From: Antedon mediterranea
Lineage: Eukaryota > Echinodermata > Crinoidea > Comatulida > Antedonidae
Assembly: GCF_964355755.1 (NCBI RefSeq)
Contig: NC_092673.1
Span: forward strand, 4,841,001 to 4,905,000
Direction of reading: 5' to 3'
DNA: 64,000 nucleotides
The notes below the pieces were generated by a model that was not told the DNA's origin, searched no databases, and was given only the letters and a program-made list of their open reading frames with translations. Shown here piece after piece: positions 10,626-50,900 of the stretch. A program made the position numbers and the translations under genes. Each line of letters opens with the position of its first letter. Position 1 is the first letter of the stretch.

Positions 10626-13600
10626 TTAGTCATCTATAACAATTGACAGAGCACGGATATCAGATAACTTTTGCTGGAGTATAACTTCATATTTTTCATC
10701 GTCGATAACAGAGAACTCTTCTCCTTTCAGGTGGGCTGCTAGTTCAGCGTATATGTGGAAACATTCTGTGTAATAGTTGATCTGTGATTTGATAAGGGCT
10801 TCAAAGCATGGCTGAAAATATTCTATTCTACCATTAAAGAACTGAGGTAGCTCCTCCATTAGTTTATTGTGTTCTGATTCATAGTCTTCTCTTGCTGCAT
10901 TTAAAGCCTTCTTAGCCTGAGAAGTTAAACAAATTATATTACTGTATTCACTAGTGCTTATAATTGAGATTTGTTGAAATGAGTTGCTTTCTTTCTCCGG
11001 TCCGGCAAATAAAATATCATGTTTCGTTTTTCTCTATGCTCCACACAGCTATGCGCCAATCTCTTTACCAAATATGCGTAAAATACGCCAAACAAAAGGT
11101 TGATAATACTATAAGCATAATCTGGCGTAAACTTGACCAGAGCAGGTGTGAAAGGCCCTTTTAGATGTATTGCCCCCCAAAAATAAAAAAAAAAGACTTT
11201 GAATAGGCCATTTTGCAGTTTTAATCAAGTTAATCACTTCTGTAGAAAAATAAATAATGTTTCTACTATAAAAAAGACAAAATAAACGGTTAAATTCAAC
11301 CAAAAACGCATGGACTTCCAGTCAATTTGAATACTTTTTTGCTTTAAATTACAGTTTTTTAATAATAATTTTTTTTTCAATACAATTTTTGGTCAAAGTA
11401 ATAACTATTATGTGACATTAAAATGACATAATCAACAAGAAAAATATTTTTTCAGGGGGACAATATATCTTAAAATAGGTAAAATGAGGGCAGATTGGTT
11501 ATTTATATTCCTAAACTGATTGTGTTCCTGTAATATGACAGTTAAAGATTAATTAATAATAATTAAGGGGGAAGCATTAGTACCTGTTCAAATTTGACAA
11601 TGTTTGGACCTGTTCTTTCTTTTTCCTGATATTTCTCCATTTTTGCATGTGCTTTTCTATATTCTTGCAACAATTGTTCTCGTTTTCTTATGGCTGTATA
11701 CACACTAGGAAAAATACCACTAAACTTCTTCATGGGATCTATCATACAGTGCTGTGCATTTTCATTCTGAAACGAACAGGTACACAATAAAAAAAAGTAA
11801 TTTATTAGCACAGATATAGAATAGTATGAAATGATTGTATGTAAAGCACTTAGTGGTTCAAACTTGTTTGTCAAATTGTTCAAATCTGTTCCTTAAACAT
11901 TTAGCAACTTCTGATTCTCCGGTTCAAATGAATTACAAAGCATCCAGTACAATACACTATACAGGATTTAAATTTAACAATTGAAAATAACCAAATGGTG
12001 TTAGTTAAACCTGTCTTTATGAACACCACAATTGATTTAATCAAAGAATTTCAATAAAGGTATTATATCTAAGAAAAGTGGTCTAGGTACTTAGATAACC
12101 ACAAACAAAACGTGTTTACATTTTAAGAGCCTGTTCAGACTTTACAATTTACCCATGTAATGGTTGTGTGTGGTGTAAATTTTGAGATAAACTAATTAAA
12201 AAATGCAACTCATGAGGTGGATTTTTCAATTACACCTTAAACCGAAAGCTGATTTACCAGGAGCAACTTGACCTTAATAATAGTGTAAAAAGATGCATAA
12301 AATATAACCTTGCTGAGTAAATTTTTGTTGTGTAAATAGTTTGTCTGGTCAGTTCCAAGAGTAATTTAGGTTACACATGTAATTGAGTTTAAAGTCTGAA
12401 CACAGCCTAAGACTTACAAATTGTACCATGAATTCATCAACCCTTGATATACTAGAATACATCTCTTCAAATTCTTTAAAGTCATCCTCTGTGTTCAAGA
12501 GAGGGCTTGCAGCCAGGTTTTGTCCTATACGACACTGCAACTTAGACAACTGGGCCATACTGTCTATGCATTTCTTCATATCTTTATATAGTTTCTTGGT
12601 AGCTTCATCGAGCCTATGGTAAAAGAATACAGTTAAATACTTAGGGTGGTTTCGTACAGTAGCATTAAACTAGATGGCAACTGGGTAGTATAGGAATTGC
12701 TGTTTGAAAATTCTGTTAATCACTACACAGTAGAGAGGGGTAGGGTAGAATGACTGAAATGATAATTGTGGACAACATAATGACAAAACAACCGTTCTTA
12801 TGGTTATCTGCAGATGTTTACAAACCAACTTGTTGTGGACAGAGAAACAGGCACCACTTGGTGACAGCACTTAACACGAAGGGCATATAGGGGAGAAGAA
12901 AGTTGTGGTATATGTCGTCCACACTTGTGCACAGCCCAGTAGGCTGCAAGTCACAGGTTATTCTCCAATTTACATTAGTTTTTGAAAACAATAACTAGTC
13001 CAGTTATTATATGAAATAGATAGAAAGAAAAGAAATACAACATTATATTTTTACTCACACTTCAATTTTCTGTACTTCATCTTCAAATGCTTTTTCATCC
13101 TGAAAAAAAATCAGTGAATATTAAGAGAATACAATACGCTAAATTATATAGAAGATGAACATTTAATCATAATATAAAACACTTACTGTTTTGCTAATGA
13201 CAGCCTTCTTTGGAGTTGATAAGCGACTAAATGAAGAAAACCTTTAAAATTGAGAAGAAAACGATTTATTTAGATAATATAGCCTGTTTATTATTAAATA
13301 TTTAATTTTAAATTATAAAATAAGTCATTTGGACACCTGCTTAGAAACGTTTGATTGTTCTGTAATAAAAAAGAAAAAAACACACGGCCAATAGCCTATA
13401 GGGTATATAGATATCTATTACTACTACACAGTTGGACCATCATAAGCCTTGGCCTACTACTATACCCCACCCATCATCGGACCCATCCCAGCCCGGTTCA
13501 GGCAACTGGCACCGCAGGATTGATATGGTGAAGAGGCCTGGAGTTTGTTGTATTACTTGATAGCCTTATATCGTATATATAATTGTTTCTAATAGCTCCG

Positions 13601-23500: not shown

Positions 23501-26500
23501 TAAAACATTTGGTAATTATGTATATCACGGAAGAACATTTATTTTGTAGGTTTGATGCTTCCTTACGTCGCTCAGGTAGAGTTTCTAAACGTAACGTCAA
23601 ACAACGAACAGTTATCTATAGGTGAGAATTTCTCGGTAGCTGAGCTTGTTAACCCTGGCATGCACTTTCCACGACCTTTCAGAGAGCTTTTCTTGTGGGC
23701 AGTTTTAGTTGGCAGGTATGTTTAAAAATCTATTTTGGTAGTGTTGAAATATTTTAATACAAATAGTGATTTTCATTTATTTAGTTTATATTCGTATTAA
23801 AAACCATATCATGAAGCTCGAGCCAAATGGTAAAAGGATTTCAGGTTTAGAATCCTGGTTATGCTTGTTTTTTTCTCACTATTCACTCTTCCTAACTAAT
23901 TGAATTCCAGAGTATCACTAGGTGGTTTAGAGTTTATGCCTGTGAATTTGTATTATATTGCTAATTGGTGTTTACATATTTTTATCAAATATATAATATA
24001 CAGTATATAAGCCACTTGACTCAGCAGAATCTACTGTAGCAGGATTGTATTTGCATTTTAATTTTATGTAGTAGTTTTGATGATTGAATAAAGTACCGTC
24101 ATTTGTATGTGGTTTACTTCCAAATAGGATGGACTTAGCAGAATTCTTCTGGGAGAGAGGAGAAGACCCAGTTTGTTTAGCCATCGTAGCATCAAGAATG
24201 TTACGTTCAATGTCAAAAAGAGCACAAGATCCAGATGACAAACTTAAGCTTCTTGAAAACTCAAGGTAATAATGCACAATGCATAATGGGAAGGGTTAAG
24301 TTGTTGTTTGTACGTATGCGTTGTGGCGTTTGGTCTCAAACCCTTACCACCATGTGCGATAAACCTTATGAAGCATTGAAAAAAAAGTTTTCTTTTTTTC
24401 TTTTAAATACTGAACAATTATTCACAATTATAATTGTCAAATGATTATCTTGTCTGTTACATTTACAGTACGTTTTACTATTTTAATTTCTGTAATTCAC
24501 ATTAAATATGTACATATATATCCTTTTGTTTCAGGCAATTTGAGAAACTTGCAATCTGTGTAGTTGATGAGTGCTATGAGACTGATGAAGATCTAGCCCA
24601 GATGATGATAGAGATTCCACATCAGCAGTGGGGAGGTATGAACACCTTGACCATTGCTGCCGAGTCAGAAGCAGAAGAATTTATTTCCCGTCCATGTGCT
24701 CAGGCTGTCATCCAGAACATTTGGATGGATGGAATGCGGTGTTCGTCAAGGAAAGCGTTCTTTGTTTTGCTTGTACCGCTACTGTTGACGGTGATTCCGT
24801 ACAGGAAGGATTTTGGTTCAAAAACAATGCGGGAGAAAGTGTGGATGTTCTACAATGCCCCGGTAACCAAGTTCTTTGCGGGATTGGTAGGATTATTTCT
24901 AATTTTACTAAATTTGCAATAATCATACACTAAATTCAGGTGGCACGATCTTCAAAAAATCTAAAAAATATACAAAAAAGCCTAAAATGAAAAAGGAATT
25001 CGAGTTGAGAAGAAATGTCTTTAGTATAAGAATAAGTAATCACTGCTATACAATTTAGTAAACATCTGTCCAAGTGTTTGAAGTTAGATTGGATATGATT
25101 GGTCAAAGTAGGACTTGAATACCATTCTGGTCTATGTGGCATAACTTGCCTGTGGGTCTCAAGAGGTGAACATAGCCTATCTAAAGCTCTGTCTACACTA
25201 TCAAACTAGTTTGACAAAAAATGTGTGATGTGCCCAAATATAGTAGTGATATACCCAAATATGGTAGTGATATGACATCATTATATCCATATACAGTATG
25301 GGCACATTTGTTGTCACATAAAGTTTGATAGTGTAGACAGAGCTGTATACTCACACCAAAGTACTGTACATGTATATTTCGTTATTCAATATTTGTTCAT
25401 TGTCTGGCTTTAGAACATCTATCTTAAAGATGGAAAAACATGTAGGATGAACATTGTTTGCATTTACTGTTGTCTGTTTTCATTTATAAAACTTATATTG
25501 AATGAGTCTGTACACACCTACTCTAGCTCATGTCCACTTTAAAGTTACTAGTGCATCTTTCAAGACGAGTAGGGGTTACCCAGGTGTACTAGTATACAAA
25601 CATCCACTGATCATAACTGGGCCCTCTGGGAGACCAGACTGAAGAGGTCACCCAGTATAAATAAAATATTTCATTTCAATTCTCACTCACATTATAAATT
25701 ATGAATATAAACATATGCTATATCTTTTCTTTTTTAGATTACATATTTGATGTTACTTTTACTGTTCAGCTACGTGTTAATCTTCGATTTTCAACAAGAG
25801 CCGTCACGTTATGAAGTCGCTTTATTTATATGGATTTGTAGCCTTATTATTGAAGAATTTCGACAGGTAAATAATAAACGACAATATTTATTTAATTTAT
25901 TATTTATATATAGGATTTTACTGAGCAAATTTATTGATCGTTTACTCCTAATGTTTGCCATAAGAAAAGTTGTCTTAAATTCCACACTTTAATAGTAACC
26001 CCCCTTCTAATAATAACCCACTACTCTTATAGTAACCCATGGGGGTTACTATTAGAGTCACAAAAACTTATGATGCAGCCGTATTTTAATAAGGAGATAA
26101 TGCATGTTGATCTCGGGAGTGGGGGAGGAGTGTTTTTGAGTTTATAAAATAAAGTTAGAGTTCAACCAAATTTGTTTATTCGTATTGTTTTATTATTTTA
26201 CTATGAGTTGCTGACCGGAAAAGTTGATGGTGGGTACTATTTTCAGTGCCTAATTTAAGATTAGTAATAATAGTAACCCACTACTCTAATAGTAACCCCT
26301 CTTCTAATAGTAACCCACCCTAAAAAACAATCAAAGAATAATAACCCAGGGTTACAATTAGATTACGGAATTCAGTCTTTTACAGTTTAATAATTGTTTA
26401 TGTTTATAATTGTTCTTTGTTCTTCTCTACCTTAGTTGGCAATACCAAATGAGTTTGAGACGTGGTATCAGAAAGTTCGTCAGTGGAAACGTAGTGTGTG

Positions 26501-35995: not shown

Positions 35996-38900
35996 ATGAA
36001 TATATCGGGAAATATTCTATCATCAGTGGTGCAGACGCGGTCAATTGAAAGAGTTTTAGCACCTATCGCGGCTCAAGTAAGTATTTTTTGGCTAGGCCAA
36101 GCAGTCAAACAGAGAGAGGCTGGTTGTTTACACTCACACAGCGCAATACAGCCACAGCGGCCGCACCACCATTTAGCATGATGAGTAGGCCTAGGCTTGA
36201 TATTTTAAAAACTAGATGGTATTTTATATACCGGCGTGAAGTTGGTTACTTATTCCTTATTCGATATTCAATTTTTTTTGTGAAGTTGGATCCTTATTCG
36301 GCATTCACATTCACATGTATGGGGCGCAATATGTGTAATATTTTAATTAAATGATTTTATACTTACGGCTTAGATTAACTAGGGCTATGATTTATATTTA
36401 TATTTATATTTAAAACCTTACTACAATTTAACGTTTTTATAAAAAATGCAATATAACCGGATGATATATAAGGCTATAATTACGTTATAAACGGCATAGA
36501 CCGGGATGACGATACATGGGTTGGAGTGAGTAGGATCCAGTCATTTCAGAAAATTTTCTCTTGCCCCGGTCCATGCCGTCTAGCTGTCATTTTACGCCAT
36601 TTTAAAACGTTACTACAATTTAACGTTTTTTAAATAAAAAATGCAATATAACAGGATGATATATAGGGCTATAATTACGTTATAAACGGCATGGACCGGG
36701 ATGACGATACATGGGTTGGGGCAAGTAGGGTCCAGTCAATTCAGAAAAATACCACTTGCCCCGGTCCATGCCGTCTAGCTATCATTTTACGCCATTTTAA
36801 AACGTTACTACAATTTAAGGTTTTTTTAAATAAAAAATGCAATATAACAGGATGATATATAGGGCTATAATTACGTTATAAACGGCATGGACCGGGATGA
36901 CGATACATGGGTTGGGGCGAGTAGGGTCCAGTCATTTCAGAAAAATACCACTTGCCCCGGTCCATGCCGTCTAGCTGTCATTTTACGCCATTTTAAAACG
37001 TTACCGGTACTACAATTTAATTTTTTTAAATAAAAAATGCAATATAACCGAATGATTTATAGGGCTATAATTACGTTATAAACGGCATGGACCGGGATGA
37101 CGATACATGGGTTGGGGCAAGTAGGGTCCAGTAGTTTCAGAAAAATACCACTTGACCCGGTCCATGCCATCTAGTTGCCATTTCACGCCATTTTAAAACC
37201 TTACTACAATTTAACGTTTGTAAAAAAATGCAATATAACCGGATGAAATATAGGGTTATAATTACGTTATAAACGGCATGGACCGGGATGACGATACATG
37301 GGTTGGGGCGAGAAGGGTCCAGTGATTTAAGAAAAATACATCTTATCCCGGTCCATGCCGTCTAGCTGTCATTTTACGCCATTTTAAAACGTTACTACAA
37401 TTTAAGGTTTTCATAAAAAATGCAATGTAAACGTATGATTTATAGGGCTATAATTACGTTATAAACGGCATGGACCGGGATGACGATACATGGGTTGGGG
37501 CAAGTAGGGTCCAGTCAATTCAGAAAAATACCACTTGCCCTGGTCCATGCCGTCTAGCTATCATTTTACGCCATTTTAAAACGTTACTACAATTTAACGG
37601 GTTTTTTTTTATAAAAAATGCAATATAACCGAATGATTTATAGGGCTATAATTACGTTATAAACGGCATGGACCGGGATGACGATACATGGGTTGGGGCT
37701 AGTAGGGTCCAGTCTTTTCAGAAAAATACCACTTGCCCCGGTCCATGCCGTCTAGCTGCCATTTCACGTCATTTTAAAACCTTACTACAATTTAACGTTT
37801 TTATAAAAAATGCAATATAACCGGATGATATATAAGGCTATAATTACGTTATAAACGGCATGAACCGGGATGACGATACATGGGTTGGAGTGAGTAGGAT
37901 CCAGTCATTTCAGAAAATTTTCTCTTGCCCCGGTCCATGCCGTCTAGCTGTAATTTTACGCCATTTTAAAACGTTACTACAATTTAACGTTTTTTAAATA
38001 AAAAATGCAATATAACATGATGATATATAGGGCTATAATTACGATATAAACGGCATGGACCGGGATGACGATACATGGGTTGGGGCAAGTAGGGTCCAGT
38101 CAATTCAGAAAAATACCACTTGCCCCGGTCCATGCCGTCTAGCTATCATTTTACGCCATTTTAAAACGTTACTACAATTTAAGGTTTTTTTAAATAAAAA
38201 ATGCAATATAACAGGATGATATATAGGGCTATAATTACGTTATAAACGGCATGGACCGGGATGACGATACATGGGTTGGGGCGAGTAGGGTCCAGTCATT
38301 TCAGAAAAATACCACTTGCCCCGGTCCATGCCGTCTAGCTGTCATTTTACGCCATTTTAAAACGTTACCGGTACTACAATTTAATTTTTTTAAATAAAAA
38401 ATGCAATATAACCGAATGATTTATAGGGCTATAATTACGTTATAAACGGCATGGACCGGGATGACGATACATGGGTTGGGGCTAGTAGGGTCCAGTAGTT
38501 TCAGAAAAATACCACTTGACCCGGTCCATGCCATCTAGTTGCCATTTCACGCCATTTTAAAACCTTACTACAATTTAACGTTTGTAAAAAAATGCAATAT
38601 AACCGGATGAAATATAGGGTTATAATTACGTTATAAACGGCATGGACCGGGATGACGATACATGGGTTGGGGCGAGAAGGGTCCAGTGATTTAAGAAAAA
38701 TACATCTTACCCCGGTCCATGCCGTCTAGCTGTCATTTTACGCCATTTTAAAACGTTACTACAATTTAAGGTTTTCATAAAAAATGCAATGTAAACGTAT
38801 GATTTATAGGGCTATAATTACGTTATAAACGGCATGGACCGGGATGACGATACATGGGTTGGGGCAAGTAGGGTCCAGTCAATTCAGAAAAATACCACTT

Positions 38901-41900
38901 GCCCTGGTCCATGCCGTCTAGCTATCATTTTACGCCATTTTAAAACGTTACTACAATTTAACGGGTTTTTTTTTATAAAAAATGCAATATAACCGAATGA
39001 TTTATAGGGCTATAATTACGTTATAAACGGCATGGACCGGGATGACGATACATGGGTTGGGGCTAGTAGGGTCCAGTCTTTTCAGAAAAATACCACTTGC
39101 CCCGGTCCATGCCGTCTAGCTGCCATTTCACGTCATTTTAAAACCTTACTACAATTTAACGTTTTTATAAAAAATGCAATATAACCGGATGATATATAAG
39201 GCTATAATTACGTTATAAACGGCATAGACCGGGATGACGATACATGGGTTGGAGTGAGTAGGATCCAGTCATTTCAGAAAATTTTCTCTTGCCCCGGTCC
39301 ATGCCGTCTAGCTGTCATTTTACGCCATTTTAAAACGTTACTACAATTTAACGTTTTTTAAATAAAAAATGCAATATAACAGGATGATATATAGGGCTAT
39401 AATTACGTTATAAACGGAATGAACCGGGATGACGATACATGGGTTGGGGCGAGTAGGGTCCAGTCATTTCAGAAAAATACCTCTTACCCCGGTCCATGCC
39501 GTCTAGCTGTCATTTTACGCCATTTTAAAACGTTACTACAATTTAAGGTTTTCATAAAAAATGCAATGTAAACGTATGATTTATAGGGCTATAATTACGT
39601 TATAAACGGCATGGACCGGGATGACGATACATGGGTTGGGGCAAGTAGAGTCCAGTCAATTCAGAAAATTACCACTTGCCCCTGTCCATGCCGTCTAGCT
39701 ATCATTTTACGCCATTTTAAAACGTTACTACAATTTAACGTTTTTTTATAAAAAATGCAATATAACCGAATGATTTATAGGGCTATAATTACGTTATAAA
39801 CGGCATGGACCGGGATGACGATACATGGGTTGGGGCTAGTAGGGTCCAGTCGTTTCAGAAAAATACCACTTGACCCGGTCCATGCCGTTTATAACGTAAT
39901 TATAGCCCTATATATCATCCTGTTATATTGCATTTTTTTTTAAAAAAAAACGTTAAATTGTAGTAACGTTTTGAAATGGCGTAAAATGATAGCTAGACGG
40001 CATGGACCGGGGCAAGTGGTATTTTTCTGAATTGACTGGACCCTACTTGCCCCAACCGATATATCGTCATCCCGGTCCATGCCGTTTATAACGTAATTAT
40101 AGCCCTATAAATCATTCGGTTATATTGCATTTTTTATAAATAAAAACGTTAAATTGTAGTAACGTTTTAAAATGGCGTAAAATGATAGCTAGACGGCATG
40201 GACCGGGGCAAGTGGTATTTTTCTGAATTGACTGGACCCTACTTGCCCCAACCCATGTATCGTCATCCCGGTCCATGCCGTTTATAACGTAATTATAGCC
40301 CTATACATCATACGTTTACATTGCATTTTTTATGAAAACCTTAAATTGTAGTAACGTTTTAAAATGGCGTAAAATGGTAGCTAGACGGCATGGACCGGGG
40401 TAAGAGGTATTTTTCTGAAATGACTGGACCCTGCTCGCCCCAACCCATGTATCGTCATCCCGGTCCATGCCGTTTATAACGTAATTATAGCCCTATAAAT
40501 CATTCGGTTATATTGCATTTTTTATAAAAAAAAACGATAAATTGTAGTAACGTTTTAAAATGGCGTAAAATGATAGCTAGACGGCATGGACCGGGGCAAG
40601 TGGTATTTTTCTGAATTGACTGGACCCTACTAGCCCCAACCCATGTATCGTCATCCCGGTCCATGCCGTTTATAACGTATTTATAGCCCTATAAATCATT
40701 CGGTTATATTGCATTTTTTATTTTTAAAAATTAAATTGTAGGACCGGTAACGTTTTAAAATGGAGTAAAATGATAGCTAGAAGACATGGACCGGGGCAAG
40801 TGGTATTTTTCTGAATTGACTGGACCCTACTTGCCCCAACCCATGTATCGTCATCCCGGTCCATGCCGTTTATAACGTAATTATAGCCCTATAAATCATT
40901 CGGTTATATTGCATTTTTTTATAAAAAAACACGTTAAATTGTAGTAACGTTTTAAAATGGCGTAAAATGATAGCTAGACGGTATGGACCGGGACAAGTGG
41001 TATTTTTCTGAATTGATTGGACCCTACTTGCCCCAACCCATGTATCGTCATCCCGGTCCATGCCGTTTATAACGTAATTATAGCCCTATACATCATACGT
41101 TTACATTGCATTTTTTATGAAAACCTTAAATTGTAGTAACGTTTTAAAATGGCGTAAAATGACAGCTAGACGGCATGGACCGGGGTAAGAGGTATTTTTC
41201 TGAAATGACTGGACCCTACTCGCCCCAACCCATGTATCGTCATCCCGGTCCATGCCGTTTATAACGTAATTACAGCCCTATATATCATCCGGTTATATTG
41301 CATTTTTTATAAAAACGTTAAATTGTAGTAAGGTTTTAAAATGGCGTGAAATGGCAGCTAGACGGCATGGACCGGGTCAAGTGGTATTTTTCTGAAACTA
41401 CTGGACCCTACTAGCCCCAACCCATGTATCGTCATCCCGGTCCATGCCGTTTATAACGTAATTATAGCCCTATAAATCATTCGGTTATATTGCATTTTTT
41501 ATTTAAAAAAAACGTTAAATTGTAGTAACAGTAACGTTTTAAAATGGTTTAAAATGACAGCTAGACGGCATGGACCGGGGCAAGTGGTATTTTTCTGAAA
41601 TGAATGGACCCTACTCGCCCCAACCCATGTATCGTTATCCCGGTCCATGCCGTTTATAACGTAATTATAGCCCTATATATCATCCTGTTATATTGCATTT
41701 TTTATTTTAAAAAACGTTAAATTGTAGTAACGTTTTGAAATGGCATAAAATGATAGCTAGACGGCATGGACCAGGGCAAGTGGTATTTTTCTGAATTGAC
41801 TGGACCCTACTTGCCCCAACCGATGTATCGTCATCCCGGTCCATGCCGTTTATAACGTAATTATAGCCCTATAAATCATTCGGTTATATTGCATTTTTTT

Positions 41901-44900
41901 ATAAAAAAACACGTTAAATTGTAGTAACGTTTTAAAATGGCGTAAAATGATAGCTAGACGGCATGGACCGGGGTAAGAGGTATTTTTCTGAAATGACTGG
42001 ACCCTGCTCGCCCCAACCCATGTATCGTCATCCCGGTCCATGCCGTTTATAACGTAATTACAGCCCTATATATCATCCGGTTATATTGCATTTTTTATAA
42101 AAACGTTAAATTGTAGTAAGGTTTTAAAATGGCGTGAAATGGCAGCTAGACGGCATGGACCGGGTCAAGTGGTATTTTTCTGAAACTACTGGACCCTACT
42201 AGCCCCAACCCATGTATCGTCATCCCGGTCCATGCCGTTTATAACGTAATTATAGCCCTATAAATCATTCGGTTATATTGCATTTTTTATTTAAAAAAAA
42301 CGTTAAATTGTAGTAACAGTAACGTTTTAAAATGGTTTAAAATGACAGCTAGACGGCATGGACCGGGTCAAGTGGTATTTTTCTGAAACTACTGGACCCT
42401 ACTAGCCCCAACCCATGTATCGTCATCCCGGTCCATGCCGTTTATAACGTAATTATAGCCCTATAAATCATTCGGTTATATTGCATTTTTTATTTTAAAA
42501 AACCGTTAAATTGTAGTAGCGTTTTAAAATGGCGTAAAATGATAGCTAGACGGCATGGACCGGGGCAAGTGGTATTTTTCTGAATTGACTGGACCCTACT
42601 TGCCCCAACCCATGTATCGTCATCCCGGTCCATGCCGTTTATAACGTAATTATAGCCCTATAAATCATTCGGTTATATTGCATTTTTTTTATAAAAAAAC
42701 ACGTTAAATTGTAGTAACGTTTTAAAATGGCGTAAAATGATAGCTAGACGGCATGGACCGGGGCAAGTGGTATTTTTCTGAATTGACTGGACCCTACTTG
42801 CCCCAACTCATGTATCGTCATCCCGGTCCATGCCGTTTATAACGTAATTATAGCCCTATAAATCATTCGGTTATATTGCATTTTTTTATAAAAAAACACG
42901 TTAAATTGTAGTAACGTTTTAAAATGGCGTAAAATGATAGCTAGACGGCATGGACCGGGACAAGTGGTATTTTTCTGAATTGACTGGACCCTACTTGCCC
43001 AACCCATGTATCGTCATCCCGGTCCATGCCGTTTATAACGTAATTATAGCCCTATACATCATACGTTTACATTGCATTTTTTATGAAAACCTTAAATTGT
43101 AGTAACGTTTTAAAATGGCGTAAAATGACAGCTAGACGGCATGGACCGGGGTAAGAGGTATTTTTCTGAAATGACTGGACCCTACTCGCCCCAACCCATG
43201 TATCGTCATCCCGGTCCATGCCGTTTATAACGTAATTACAGCCCTATATATCATCCGGTTATATTGCATTTTTTATAAAAACGTTAAATTGTAGTAAGGT
43301 TTTAAAATGGCGTGAAATGGCAGCTAGACGGCATGGACCGGGTCAAGTGGTGTTTTTCTGAAACTACTGGACCCTACTAGCCCCAACCCATGTATCGTCA
43401 TCCCGGTCCATGCCGTTTATAACGTAATTATAGCCCTATAAATCATTCGGTTATATTGCATTTTTTATAAAAAAAAACCCGTTAAATTGTAGTAACGTTT
43501 TAAAATGGCGTAAAATGATAGCTAAATGGCATGGACCGGGGCAAGTGGTATTTTTCTGAATTGACTGGACCCTACTTGCCCCAACCCATGTATCGTCATC
43601 CCGGTCCATGCCGTTTATAACGTAATTATAGCCCTATACATCATACGTTTACATTGCATTTTTTATGAAAACCTTAAATTGTAGTAACGTTTTAAAATGG
43701 CGTAAAATGACAGCTAGACGGCATGGACCGGGGTAAGAGGTATTTTTCTGAAATGACTGGACCCTACTCGCCCCAACCCATGTATCGTCATCCCGTTCCA
43801 TGCCGTTTATAACGTAATTACAGCCCTATATATCATCCGGTTATATTGCATTTTTTATAAAAACGTTAAATTGTAGTAAGGTTTTAAAATGGCGTGAAAT
43901 GGCAGCTAGACGGCATGGACCGGGTCAAGTGGTTTTTTCTGAAACTACTGGACCCTACTAGCCCCAACCCATGTATCGTCATCCCGGTCCATGCCGTTTA
44001 TAACGTAATTATAGCCCTATAAATCATTCGGTTATATTGCATTTTTTATTTAAAAAAAACGTTAAATTGTAGTAACAGTAACGTTTTAAAATGGTTTAAA
44101 ATGACAGCTAGACGGCATGGACCGGGGCAAGTGGTATTTTTCTGAAATGAATGGACCCTACTCGCCCCAACCCATGTATCGTTATCCCGGTCCATGCCGT
44201 TTATAACGTAATTATAGCCCTATAAATCATTCGGTTATATTGCATTTTTTTATAAAAAAACACGTTAAATTGTAGTAACGTTTTAAAATGGCGTAAAATG
44301 ATAGCTAGACGGCATGGACCGGGGTAAGAGGTATTTTTCTGAAATGACTGGACCCTGCTCGCCCCAACCCATGTATCGTCATCCCGGTCCATGCCGTTTA
44401 TAACGTAATTACAGCCCTATATATCATCCGGTTATATTGCATTTTTTATAAAAACGTTAAATTGTAGTAAGGTTTTAAAATGGCGTGAAATGGCAGCTAG
44501 ACGGCATGGACCGGGTCAAGTGGTATTTTTCTGAAACTACTGGACCCTACTAGCCCCAACCCATGTATCGTCATCCCGGTCCATGCCGTTTATAACGTAA
44601 TTATAGCCCTATAAATCATTCGGTTATATTGCATTTTTTATTTTAAAAAACCGTTAAATTGTAGTAGCGTTTTAAAATGGCGTAAAATGATAGCTAGACG
44701 GCATGGACCGGGGCAAGTGGTATTTTTCTGAATTGACTGGACCCTACTTGCCCCAACCCATGTATCGTCATCCCGGTCCATGCCGTTTATAACGTAATTA
44801 TAGCCCTATAAATCATTCGGTTATATAGCATTTTTTTATAAAAAAACACGTTAAATTGTAGTAACGTTTTAAAATGGCGTAAAATGATAGCTAGACGGCA

Positions 44901-47900
44901 TGGACCGGGGCAAGTGGTATTTTTCTGAATTGACTGGACCCTACTTGCCCCAACCGATGTATCGTCATCCCGGTCCATGCCGTTTATAACGTAATTATAG
45001 CCCTATAAATAATTCAGTTATATTGCATTTTTTTATAAAAAAACACGTTAAATTGTAGTAACGTTTTAAAATGGCGTAAAATGATAGCTAGACGGCATGG
45101 ACCGGGACAAGTGGTATTTTTCTGAATTGACTGGACCCTACTTGCCCCAACCCATGTATCGTCATCCCGGTCCATGCCGTTTATAACGTAATTATAGCCC
45201 TATACATCATACGTTTACATTGCATTTTTTATGAAAACCTTATATTGTAGTAACGTTTTAAAATGGCGTAAAATGACAGCTAGACGGCATGGACCGGGGT
45301 AAGAGGTATTTTTCTGAAATGACTGGACCCTACTCGCCCCAACCCATGTATCGTCATCCCGGTCCATGCCGTTTATAACGTAATTACAGCCCTATGTATC
45401 ATCCGGTTATATAGCATTTTTTATAAAAACGTTAAATTGTAGTAAGGTTTTAAAATGGCGTGAAATGGCAGCTAGACGGCATGGACCGGGTAAAGTGGTA
45501 TTTTTCTGAAACTACTGGACCCTACTAGCCCCAACCCATGTATCGTCATCCCGGTCCATGCCGTTTATAACGTAATTATAGCCCTATAAATCATTCGGTT
45601 ATATTGCATTTTTTATAAAAAAAAAACCGTTAAATTGTAGTAACGTTTTAAAATGGCGTAAAATGATAGCTAAATGGCATGGACCGGGGCAAGTGGTATT
45701 TTTCTGAATTGACTGGACCCTACTTGCCCCAACCCATGTATCGTCATCCCGGTCCATGCCGTTTATAACGTAATTATAGCCCTATACATCATACGTTTAC
45801 ATTGCATTTTTTATGAAAACCTTAAATTGTAGTAACGTTTTAAAATGGCGTAAAATGACAGCTAGACGGCATGGACCGGGGTAAGAGGTATTTTTCTGAA
45901 ATTACTGGACCCTACTCGCCCCAACCCATGTATCGTCATCCCGGTCCATGCCGTTTATAACGTAATTACAGCCCTATATATCATCCGGTTATATTGCATT
46001 TTTTATAACAACGTTAAATTGTAGTAAGGTTTTAAAATGGCGTGAAATGGCAGCTAGACGGCATGGACCGGGTCAAGTGGTATTTTTCTGAAACTACTGG
46101 ACCCTACTAGCCCCAACCCATGTATCGTCATCCCGGTCCATGCCGTTTATAACGTAATTATAGCCCTATAAATCATTCGGTTATATTGCATTTTGTATTT
46201 AAAAAAACCGTTAAATTGTAGTAACAGTCACGTTTTAAAATGGCTTAAAATGACAGCTAGACGGCATGGACCGGGGCAAGTGGTATTTTTCTGAAATGAA
46301 TGGACCCTACTCGCCCCAACCCATGTATCGTTATCCCGGTCCATGCCGTTTATAACGTAATTATAGCCCTATATATCATCCTGTTATATTGCATTTTTTA
46401 TTTTAAAAAACGTTAAATTGTAGTAACGTTTTGAAATGGCGTAAAATGATAGCTAGACGGCATGGACCGGGGCAAGTGGTATTTTTCTGAATTGACTGGA
46501 CCCTACTTGCCCCAACCGATGTATCGTCATCCCGGTCCATGCCGTTTATAACGTAATTATAGCCCTATAAATCATTCGGTTATATTGCATTTTTTTATAA
46601 AAAAACACGTTAAATTGTAGTAACGTTTTAAAATGGCGTAAAATGATAGCTAGACGGCATGGACCGGGGCAAGTGGTATTTTTCTGAATTGACTGGACCC
46701 TACTTGCCCCAACCGATGTATCGTCATCCCGGTCCATGCCGTTTATAACGTAATTATAGCCCTATAAATCATTCGGTTATATTGCATTTTTTTATAAAAA
46801 AACACGTTAAATTGTAGTAACGTTTTAAAATGGCGTAAAATGATAGCTAGACGGCATGGACCGGGACAAGTGGTATTTTTCTGAATTGACTGGACCCTAC
46901 TTGCCCCAACCCATGTATCGTCATCCCGGTCCATGCCGTTTATAACGTAATTATAGCCCTATACATCATACGTTTACATTGCATTTTTTATGAAAACCTT
47001 AAATTGTAGTAACGTTTTAAAATGGCGTAAAATGACAGCTAGACGGCATGGACCGGGGTAAGAGGTATTTTTCTGAAATGACTGGACCCTACTCGCCCCA
47101 ACCCATGTATCGTCATCCCGGTCCATGCCGTTTATAACGTAATTACAGCCCTATATATCATCCGGTTATATTGCATTTTTTATAAAAACGTTAAATTGTA
47201 GTAAGGTTTTAAAATGGCGTGAAATGGCAGCTAGACGGCATGGACCGGGTAAAGTGGTATTTTTCTGAAACTACTGGACCCTACTAGCCCCAACCCATGT
47301 ATCGTCATCCCGGTCCATGCCGTTTATAACGTAATTATAGCCCTATAAATCATTCGGTTATATTGCATTTTTTATAAAAAAAAAACCCGTTAAATTGTAG
47401 TAACGTTTTAAAATGGCGTAAAATGATAGCTAAATGGCATGGACCGGGGCAAGTGGTATTTTTCTGAATTGACTGGACCCTACTTGCCCCAACCCATGTA
47501 TCGTCATCCCGGTCCATGCCGTTTATAACGTAATTATAGCCCTATACATCATACGTTTACATTGCATTTTTTATGAAAACCTTAAATTGTAGTAACGTTT
47601 TAAAATGGAGTAAAATGACAGCTAGACGGCATGGACCGGGGTAAGAGGTATTTTTCTGAAATAACTGGACCCTACTCGCCCCAACCCATGTATCGTCATC
47701 TCGGTCCATGCCGTTTATAACGTAATTATAGCCCTATATTTCATCCGGTTATATTGCAATTTTTATAAAAACGTGAAATTGTAGTAAGGTTTTAAAATGG
47801 CGTGAAATGGCAGCTAGACGGCATGGACCGGGTCAAGTGGTATTTTTTTTAAACTACTGGACCCTACTAGCCCCAACCCATGTATCGTCATCCCGGTCCA

Positions 47901-50900
47901 TGCCGTTTATAACGTATTTATAGCCCTATATATCATCCTGTTATATTGAATTTTTATTTAAAAAAACGTTAAATTGTAGTAACGTTTTAAAATGGCGTAA
48001 AATGACAGCTAGACGGCATGGACCGAGGCAAGTGGTATTTTTCTGAAACGACATGACCCTACTAGCCCCAACCCATGTATCGTCATCCCGGTCCATGCCG
48101 TTTATAACGTAATTATAGCCCTATAAATCATACGGTTATATTGCATTTTTTTATAAAAAAAACTTAAATTGTGGTAACGTTTTAAAATGGTGTAAAATGG
48201 CAGCTAGACGGCATGGACCGGGGCAAGTGGTATTTTTCTGAAATGACTAGATCCTACTCGCCCCAATCCATGTATCGTCATCCCGGTCCATGCCGTTTAT
48301 CACGTCATTATAGCCCTATAAATCATCCGGTTATATTGCATTTTTTATTTTAAAAAACGTTAAATTGTAGTAAGGTTTTAAAATGGCGTAAAATGACAGG
48401 TAGACGGCATGGACCGGGGCAAGTGGTTTTTTTCTGAAACGACTGGACCCTACTAGCCCGAACCCATGTATCGTCATCCCGGTCCATGCCGTTTATAACG
48501 AAGTTATAGCCCTATAAATCATAGCCCTAGTTAATCTAAGCCGTAAGTATAAAATCATTTAATTAAAATATTACACATATTGCGCCCCATACATGTGAAT
48601 GTGAATGTCGAATAAGGATCCAACTTCACAAAAAAAATTGAATATCGAATAAGGAATAAGTAACCAACTTCACGCCGGTATTTTATATATGCACTGTACA
48701 TCCATGTTACACCTAACCTTAATTAAAGATAATTAAATCTCAGGTACTGTACAGATGTAGGATCGATCCCAAAAGTATTTTCACCTGGCAATTAATTTAA
48801 AATGTTGAATTTTCTGAAACCTTTCTATTGAAAATGAAAAATTATATCTTCATAGCTAGGCCTAGTAGTTTTTTATAATTATATTTTTTATGAAATTTAT
48901 TTTTGTGCTTTACATGTATTGTATTGTCAAGGGCCCCAATTATCAGCTTAGCTGGATGGGCTACCCTAATAAAACATGGTTCAATAAGATAAAAATTAAT
49001 AATAATTAATTGTTTTGCTTGTTTACAGGTGTCACAGCTAATCATTTTAAACGAAAGTGCAAAAGACACCCCAGGAAGTCTACCAAATCTAAGTTCTCAT
49101 GCTCAGTCCGTCCGCAAAGCCACAGAGGAGTTGGTGCTTGTGGGTCAAAGACTTGCTAAAGACTCAAAAGATGAAGTAAGTAGGCCTACCTGTACCAGTA
49201 TGCTTTTGTCATTTTACTTTCTTGAAAAATCCATTAGACACACGGTGACTGGTTGATAGCAGTGGGAAATAATTAAATCATATGATAACCTATATACCAA
49301 ATATTGATAATCCTCGCCAACCATCCTAACAATGATATATTCAAGATTTAACATAATTCCATTTCTTCTTTCAGGAGCTAAGAAAATCGATGCCAAAAGC
49401 TTGTGAGATGATAGATACTGCAGGAAATAGCATGATGCTGGCATCACAGATCCTGCAGACACAGCCTGAGAATAGTGGGGCAAGAGAGAACTTGGTGAAG
49501 GCTGCAAGAGATGTCCTGGAAGGTACAATGAAGGTGTGTATCATAAGAATAATCGCAGGCAAATTAAATAAAATGCAAAAGATTCAGATTCAGCACATTT
49601 TTAGGCCCATATTCTTAAGCTCTGTCTACACTATCAAACTAGTTTATGTGCCCAAATATGGCAGTGATATACATTAAAATAATATGATAGTGATATATAA
49701 AAATAAATAAATAAATAAATAATATGATAGTGATTTGACATTATCATGTCTATATAGGGGCACATCACATTTTTTTGTCACATAAAGTTTGATAGTGTAG
49801 ACAGAGCTTTAGTCAACTCTCAGAAAACCAAATACACCTTTGGCCGATCCAAACTGATATCTGCAGATTACATTGTGCATTTCAGAAGATTTGTGTGTTC
49901 TAGTGTTTTTGTTTTCGATGGAATTGATATTATTTCAATAATATATTGATTAATTTTACAATATCAGACTTTTAGTACAAGGTAATAATTTTGTTCAAAA
50001 ACTTTTTTTTAATTTATATTTTTTAGGTCATGCTGATTACAGATGATACAGAAGTGCGCAAAATAGTTCGTGCAGCACACTGGACAATTGATAGACTGAC
50101 CCTTCTCAAGTCTGTTGAGACTATGAAGACTTTAGTAGAAAGCTTTAAGGTAAAGACAAGTCGCTTGGATTATTCAAAACAAAAGAACCCCTCTCCCACC
50201 TTTTTTAAAATTTATTCATTCAAAAATATCGTAATCACAGCACAAGGCTGAACACTAACAATATTAACAATAATTTAAAAATACAGATATAAAATATCAA
50301 AAATATAATACACAATTAAAAAATGGTAAATGACAAAAAAAAATCATATGCTGAGTCAAAGAACTTTGTTTGGCTTTTAGGGTTTTACAGAAGCAATAAT
50401 GCTATTATCAAGTCTTTGTGATAAACGTCAACAAGATCTCACACAGCAGCAGCCTAAACAACGATTGCTGGTTGCTATGTCAACGCTCAAGAAGGCGACA
50501 CCCATGCTCAGCAGTATCATGCAGTCATTTGTGAAGTATCCAAAGAGTTCACAAGCCAAGGTTAGTGGTGTTTAAGTGTTGTATTGAGTTTTAGTAGTTG
50601 ACATTGTTTAATCAAGAAGAGTATAAATACAAGTTACTGTACCTAACTTTACACTACCTTTTGTTTTACCAATTGATTGTAAAATCATATTATGATACTT
50701 GGTATGATCAACTAGTATTCATGTTCCCAATGAATCATCCATTCATAAAAGTACTGATGAATAAGTCAATCAGTGGCGATTACAGAATGGACCAGAGACC
50801 TGACTTTCGTCGACTTTCAAATGATAGAAAATTTTGAATTTTTTGTTAGGATAGAAATATACAATGACTGTATGGAGAAATGTATGGTGCAAAGTATAGT

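What the first reader, a model, noticed from the sequence alone, without database searches (positions are those of the whole stretch)
36220..48689. A 12.4-kb intronic foldback transposon built almost wholly from a 196-bp satellite
165-bp inverted termini, an exact 11-bp flanking direct repeat (TATTTTATATA) and about 62 units in two opposed blocks show that the whole satellite array moved, or was bounded, as one transposable unit. Satellite DNA is usually seen as a by-product of local unequal exchange; here it is packaged between transposon ends. The 11-bp duplication and long termini suggest a Mutator-like or foldback origin, comparable with sea-urchin TU and Drosophila FB elements.
Basis: partly seen in the sequence, partly recalled or inferred. 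Interest (0 to 1): 0.88.

Follow-up and report, generated by a model that had tools for sequence, protein, structure and literature searches.

The report
Jumping gene built of satellite DNA
The 12.4-kb block in an intron of the vinculin gene is a mobile DNA element whose whole body is about 62 copies of a satellite repeat in two opposed arms, and about 20 related elements in the same genome show that kilobases of satellite DNA can jump as one unit.

Summary
Window 36230-48679 is a foldback-type DNA transposon: terminal inverted repeats of about 167 bp (one mismatch), then 18 and 45 units of a ~196-bp satellite in two opposed arms with no spacer and no gene. The true target-site duplication is 9 bp (ATTTTATAT). 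The assembly holds 11 full-length copies (12-24 kb), 10 with perfect and one with near-perfect 9-bp duplications. One copy sits in a multicopy repeat, and at least 34 other copies of that repeat are exact empty sites. A sister family of nine paired elements has diverged termini and a diverged satellite but the same layout and 9-bp duplications. Two elements at different loci share 34 satellite units in order plus the same inversion junction, so the array travels with the ends. Every listed satellite match lies in such an element. Inversion junctions differ between copies, and arms share recent multi-unit blocks. No transposase was linked to the ends, so Mutator membership is plausible but unproven. 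Closest known: Drosophila virilis Tetris and FB elements. This is a new, extreme variant of that kind.

The parts
36221..36229 (.). left copy of the 9-bp target-site duplication, ATTTTATAT
   Evidence: the equivalent 9-bp duplication is perfect in 10 of 11 family-A copies
36230..36396 (+). left terminal inverted repeat, 5'-ACCGGCGTGAAGTTGGTTAC..., about 167 bp
   Evidence: 99.4% to right terminus; the 22 termini of the full copies differ by about 1%; first base fixed by 11 copies
36397..39888 (+). left arm: about 18 head-to-tail ~196-bp satellite units, including a recent 7-unit duplication
39874..39889 (.). inversion junction; the strand switches at the 15-bp inverted repeat that each monomer carries (CCCGGTCCATGCCGT)
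39874..48522 (-). right arm: about 44-45 satellite units in opposite orientation
48513..48679 (-). right terminal inverted repeat
48680..48688 (.). right copy of the 9-bp target-site duplication, ATTTTATAT
35996..36076 (+). vinculin coding exon upstream of the element (MNISGNILSSVVQTRSIERVLAPIAAQ)
49029..49176 (+). next vinculin coding exon downstream (VSQLIILNESAKDTPG...), so the element is in an intron

Best explanation
It is a non-autonomous foldback-type DNA transposon whose terminal inverted repeats have grown inward into kilobase arms of a ~196-bp satellite, until the arms meet and nothing else is left. A transposase supplied in trans recognises the outer ~167 bp (or its first ~30 bp, most of which the sister family shares), excises or copies the whole 12-24 kb, and inserts it with a 9-bp duplication (shown: ends, duplications, empty site, shared array order; inferred: the transposase and its chemistry). 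Between jumps the arms change length by multi-unit duplication and share blocks between opposite arms (shown; copying is the inferred cause). The centre is repeatedly re-formed by strand switching at short inverted homologies, including a hairpin that each monomer carries (junctions shown, mechanism inferred). The satellite is therefore part of the transposon and not merely a by-product of local unequal exchange.
For: 11 full-length family-A copies have paired termini 12-24 kb apart, 10 of them with perfect and different 9-bp duplications. Joined flanks of the copy at C4:24801613-24813605 match at least 34 other places at 100% across the join with a single CCAAAGCTT; four fetched sites are 299-300/300 identical. 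Five copies read in full are satellite from end to end in two opposed arms: about 18/45, 44/86, 36/69, 37/60 and 52/40 units. Copies C8 and C5a share 34 right-arm units in order at 2.2% mean difference (score 38, maximum of 20 shuffles 8) and the same inversion junction, which C4c also has in reverse. Termini differ by about 1% between copies while monomers differ by about 10% inside the arms, about as much as between elements, so a diverse array spread, not one monomer amplified anew at each site. Arm-to-arm sharing: C4c_L[4-18] against C4c_R[6-20] at 0.6%, and C8_L[2-15] against C8_R[10-23] at 0.5%. All 100 listed genomic matches of a satellite core lie inside or next to a terminus-bounded element; 244 of 487 fall in the five elements read. 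A sister family with the same design has 8 of 9 paired elements with perfect 9-bp duplications.
Against: No transposase gene was found in any copy read, and none of 36 MULE hits lies within 200 kb of a terminus. Left arms of C8 and C5a do not share order, so much array turnover happens after or between jumps. Array length and order in 20-24-kb copies depend on the assembly, which could not be checked with reads. Only one family-A insertion has demonstrated empty sites.
Confidence: 0.85

Rival explanations
1. Short foldback elements inserted first, and each satellite array was amplified in place afterwards by unequal exchange or slippage; only the ends ever moved.
For: Multi-unit duplications within arms, different arm lengths, different inversion junctions.
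Against: C8 and C5a share 34 units in order and one junction at different sites. Monomer diversity (about 10%) far exceeds terminus divergence (about 1%) and is not element-specific. Every full-length family-A copy is about 12 kb or more.
Confidence: 0.1
2. On the separate question of superfamily: it is a Mutator-like (MULE) element, mobilised by a MULE transposase of this genome.
For: 9-bp duplication; long termini; the foldback elements Tetris and Tm1 were assigned to Mutator on such grounds (PMC4079207, PMC3169594); MULE domains are present in this genome.
Against: No MULE gene found between or near these termini. Rehavkus-type elements also have 9-bp duplications plus minisatellites (PMC6446971), so duplication length does not decide.
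Confidence: 0.55
3. A satellite array was trapped between two separate small terminal-repeat elements, or it is a satellite-carrying Helentron.
For: Satellite-carrying Helentrons are common in the Pacific oyster (PMC7492417).
Against: One 9-bp duplication flanks the whole unit in 10 of 11 copies, the empty site lacks everything in between, and Helentrons lack long terminal inverted repeats and such duplications.
Confidence: 0.02
4. The opposed arms are an assembly artefact of a collapsed or mis-joined satellite.
For: Long repeats of more than 90% identity are hard to assemble; reads could not be examined.
Against: The same two-arm layout recurs in every full-length copy read of two families, with different junctions and arm lengths and duplications on both sides.
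Confidence: 0.03

Closest known systems
Tetris, foldback transposon of Drosophila virilis (PMC4079207)
   Same: Non-autonomous foldback element with ~220-bp tandem repeats in its inverted termini, 8-10-bp duplications, no transposase found, repeats amplified into arrays of up to 66 copies.
   Different: Tetris has a middle domain and few repeats per end in its complete copies, and its authors suggested that large arrays may have disrupted the element. Here there is no middle domain, all full copies have long arrays, and these still have intact ends, 9-bp duplications and (in one pair) shared array order, so long arrays did not stop movement.
Foldback (FB) elements of D. melanogaster and TU elements of sea urchin (from memory)
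   Same: Long inverted arms of tandem repeats, variable between copies, little or no unique centre; FB also makes 9-bp duplications.
   Different: Shorter repeat units and elements of a few kb. The unit here is satellite-sized and whole elements reach 24 kb.
Tm1, Mutator/Foldback family of root-knot nematodes (PMC3169594)
   Same: Composite inverted termini with variable numbers of tandem repeats, 9-bp duplications, empty site shown.
   Different: 13-15-bp repeats, elements of about 1 kb in the examples read, and a transposase-coding group is known.
Galileo (P superfamily; PMC3573991)
   Same: Inverted termini of variable length with a ~210-bp tandem repeat and evidence of sequence exchange between copies.
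   Different: 7-bp duplications, two or three repeats per terminus, coding copies known.
Rehavkus (PMC6446971)
   Same: 9-bp duplications, 26-400-bp termini, a minisatellite next to one terminus.
   Different: Carries a transposase with a PHD finger; minisatellite described before the 3' terminus only, not as two opposed arms.
Cg_HINE Helentrons of the Pacific oyster (PMC7492417)
   Same: Satellite-like arrays dispersed by a non-autonomous DNA element.
   Different: No long terminal inverted repeats or such duplications; average array up to about 5 monomers, longest 29.

Membership tests
Foldback-type DNA transposon | long inverted arms made largely of tandem repeats, variable in length between copies | tested here: met
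Foldback-type DNA transposon | insertion as a unit with target-site duplication and empty sites | tested here: met
Foldback-type DNA transposon | no coding capacity in most copies | tested here: met
   six full elements read are satellite throughout; a seventh, L055, also carries a nested insert
Mutator-like (MULE) superfamily | 8-11-bp target-site duplication | tested here: met
   9 bp, perfect in 18 of 20 paired copies
Mutator-like (MULE) superfamily | MULE-type transposase encoded between the same ends in some copy | tested here: inconclusive
   36 MULE hits, nearest 205 kb from a terminus; three long-ORF MULE loci lack these ends; most long family-B copies not read inside
Rehavkus | PHD-finger transposase with minisatellite before the 3' terminus | not tested
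   no transposase found in the copies read; Rehavkus transposase itself not searched
Tetris | sequence homology to Tetris termini or TIR-220 repeat | not testable with these tools
   no Drosophila genome collection on hand
Helentron / HINE | subterminal inverted repeats, 3' palindrome, no such target-site duplication | tested here: not met
   long terminal inverted repeats and 9-bp duplications
P superfamily (Galileo) | 7-8-bp target-site duplication | tested here: not met
   9 bp

The most novel reading that the evidence does not exclude
The satellite monomer is a working part of the transposon: it carries a hairpin (or two-fold protein site) that is kept in both families despite sequence divergence and at which the array folds back to make new inverted arms, so the element builds and rebuilds its own giant inverted repeat and disperses a satellite that exists nowhere else in the genome. 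Support: both family monomers fold far better than shuffles (z -3.5 and -3.8), with the main stem in the homologous place and one A-T to G-C paired change between families; the window's junction lies exactly at this stem. The other junctions examined lie elsewhere, with 1-4-bp homologies.
Probability: 0.2. Interest if true: 0.8.

Novelty: new variant of a known kind. Interest (0 to 1): 0.66.

Why it matters
Satellite DNA is usually explained by local unequal exchange. Here two sister families consist of satellite nearly from end to end, have moved as units of 12-24 kb, and, for the first family, hold all of the satellite seen in the listed part of the assembly. Long arrays therefore need not block transposition, as had been suggested for Tetris, and a ready route exists for seeding satellite arrays, and large inverted repeats, into gene introns. 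The system makes the order of events testable: array first or jump first, arm-to-arm copying, and how giant inverted repeats survive.

Tried and rejected
Autonomous partner: MULE hits compared with all terminus positions, three long-ORF MULE loci, loci sharing only the outer terminus (L060: a ~0.7-kb related short element; L061, L062, L065: duplicated DNA without a recognisable transposase): none is the partner. Empty sites for other family-A copies: none in DNA already held, and the genome search listed only hits for one site because that repeat saturated the list. Species: COX1 not in the assembly, so no name is offered. A BLAST comparison of whole arrays with strict settings returned nothing between elements and was replaced by unit-by-unit comparison. 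No Rfam family matches the window or the flanks of the empty-site copy.

Full report
What is there. The window is C4:4841001-4905000 of a 354-Mb eukaryotic assembly. At 36230-48679 lies a 12.45-kb unit with inverted termini of about 167 bp that differ at one position. Inside are only satellite units of about 196 bp: 17.9 copies on the + strand, then 44.2 on the - strand, meeting near 39880 with no spacer. The host gene is vinculin (Pfam PF01044, E 1e-47; best solved structures are vinculin, E 1e-39), and the element lies in an intron between the exons ending near 36076 and starting at 49029.

Correcting the duplication. Eleven full-length copies in the genome all have A before the left CCGG and T after the right CCGG, so the terminus is 5'-ACCGG. 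The duplication is then 9 bp: perfect in 10 of 11, and in the eleventh explicable by an AT slippage (CGATAAATG against CGATATATAAATG). In the window it is ATTTTATAT.

It is a family. The terminus has about 40 matches. Eleven pairs lie 12.0-24.2 kb apart, about 172 kb in all. Five copies read in full (the window's and four others) are satellite throughout in two opposed arms of about 18/45, 44/86, 36/69, 37/60 and 52/40 units. A pattern search with the outer 20 bp found a sister family (AGCGCCGTGAAGTTGG...) with nine paired elements of 1.4-20 kb. Two long ones read in full again consist of opposed arms, of a different ~190-bp satellite that aligns to the first at 70% over 115 bp; in one of them a nested insert interrupts the left terminus. 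A third, 1.4 kb long, has a short array in one orientation only. Their duplications are 9 bp, perfect in eight of nine. For one sister-family element, a related form of the target with a single GATTTTACA is visible inside its own nested insert.

Empty sites. Flanks of all eleven family-A copies were joined with one copy of the duplication and searched. The copy at C4:24801613-24813605 gave at least 34 full-length 100% matches across the join. Four fetched sites match the joined flanks at 299-300 of 300 bases with a single CCAAAGCTT. This element of about 12 kb, bounded by identical termini, therefore inserted into one copy of a multicopy repeat, recently by the look of its flanks. Its outer 1.5 kb at each end was read; its middle was not. 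The result list was filled by this one site, so absence of others means nothing.

Does the array travel with the ends? Duplications alone would not show that. Three results bear on it. First, copies C8 and C5a, at different sites, share 34 right-arm units in order at 2.2% mean difference (alignment score 38, maximum of 20 shuffles 8) and the same inversion junction; C4c has that junction too, reversed. Second, the 22 termini differ by about 1% on average while monomers differ by about 10% within arms, and about as much between arms and between elements, so old monomer diversity was spread by young ends. Third, the satellite core pattern occurs 487 times; all 100 listed places, covering C1 to the first 4.9 Mb of C4, are in or next to terminus-bounded elements, and 244 of the 487 fall in the five elements read. 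No free satellite array was seen; the places of the other matches beyond that part were not listed.

How the arms change. Arms contain recent multi-unit duplications: 7 units in the window's left arm, shifts of 15 and 6 units in C5b, 8 in C8, 12 in C4c. Opposite arms of one element share long blocks: C4c_L[4-18] with C4c_R[6-20] at 0.6%, C8_L[2-15] with C8_R[10-23] at 0.5%. Six different inversion junctions were seen in eight elements. Of the four types examined closely, three have 1-4-bp homologies and the window's lies exactly at a 15-bp inverted repeat carried by each monomer. A family-A consensus monomer and a family-B monomer both fold better than nearly all dinucleotide shuffles (z -3.5 and -3.8), with a main stem in the homologous place. 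That the stem causes the foldback is inference.

What moves it. No transposase was found in the copies read. The genome has MULE domains, but none found within 200 kb of any terminus, and three long-ORF MULE loci lack these ends. The 9-bp duplication and long termini fit Mutator-like elements (8-11 bp; PMC6446971), and also Rehavkus. The superfamily stays open.

Comparison. Tetris of D. virilis is closest: foldback, 8-10-bp duplications, 220-bp repeats, arrays up to 66 copies, but with a middle domain, and its authors suggested that large arrays may have disrupted transposition (PMC4079207). Here large arrays are the rule and movement continued. Tm1 (PMC3169594), Galileo (PMC3573991) and Cg_HINE (PMC7492417) share single features.

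Limits. Raw reads were not available; the longest copies may be mis-sized. Six of eleven family-A copies and six of nine family-B pairs were not read in full. The species is not identified.

Noticed in passing
L055:296-2170: A nested ~1.87-kb insert with short inverted and tandem GCGAGGCA motifs at its ends sits inside the left terminus of a sister-family element, and itself contains a related copy of that element's empty target.
   Followed up: partly
L029 from 1703 and L030:1738-2940: A palindromic insert (GCGATTTTTTTTTTCGTACATAAGTTGGGGACCCC...) lies inside satellite units of two degraded family-A copies; probably another foldback element.
   Followed up: no
L066-L069 and flanks in L005/L006: The target of one insertion is a repeat with at least 34 places matching at 100% over 100 bp, on nearly all chromosomes; no Rfam match in the flanks, nature unknown.
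   Followed up: partly
L060:100-800: A ~0.7-kb element with a related terminus (TCCGACGTGAAGTTGGTTACTAG) and short ~92/147-bp internal tandem repeats; possibly a small third relative.
   Followed up: partly
L030:502-1500 and C3:28458406: Two termini depart from the family at the same base, after the first 30 bp (CTTACTAG...); in L030 this is a ~1-kb insert in the terminus, so a sub-lineage may have spread with it.
   Followed up: no
L065:1301-4408: A 74-bp tandem repeat of 42 copies at 95% identity, apparently unrelated to the element.
   Followed up: no
window 10626-11033 (-) and 24506-24922 (+): Neighbouring genes: a BAR-domain protein and a TRPM2-like channel.
   Followed up: no
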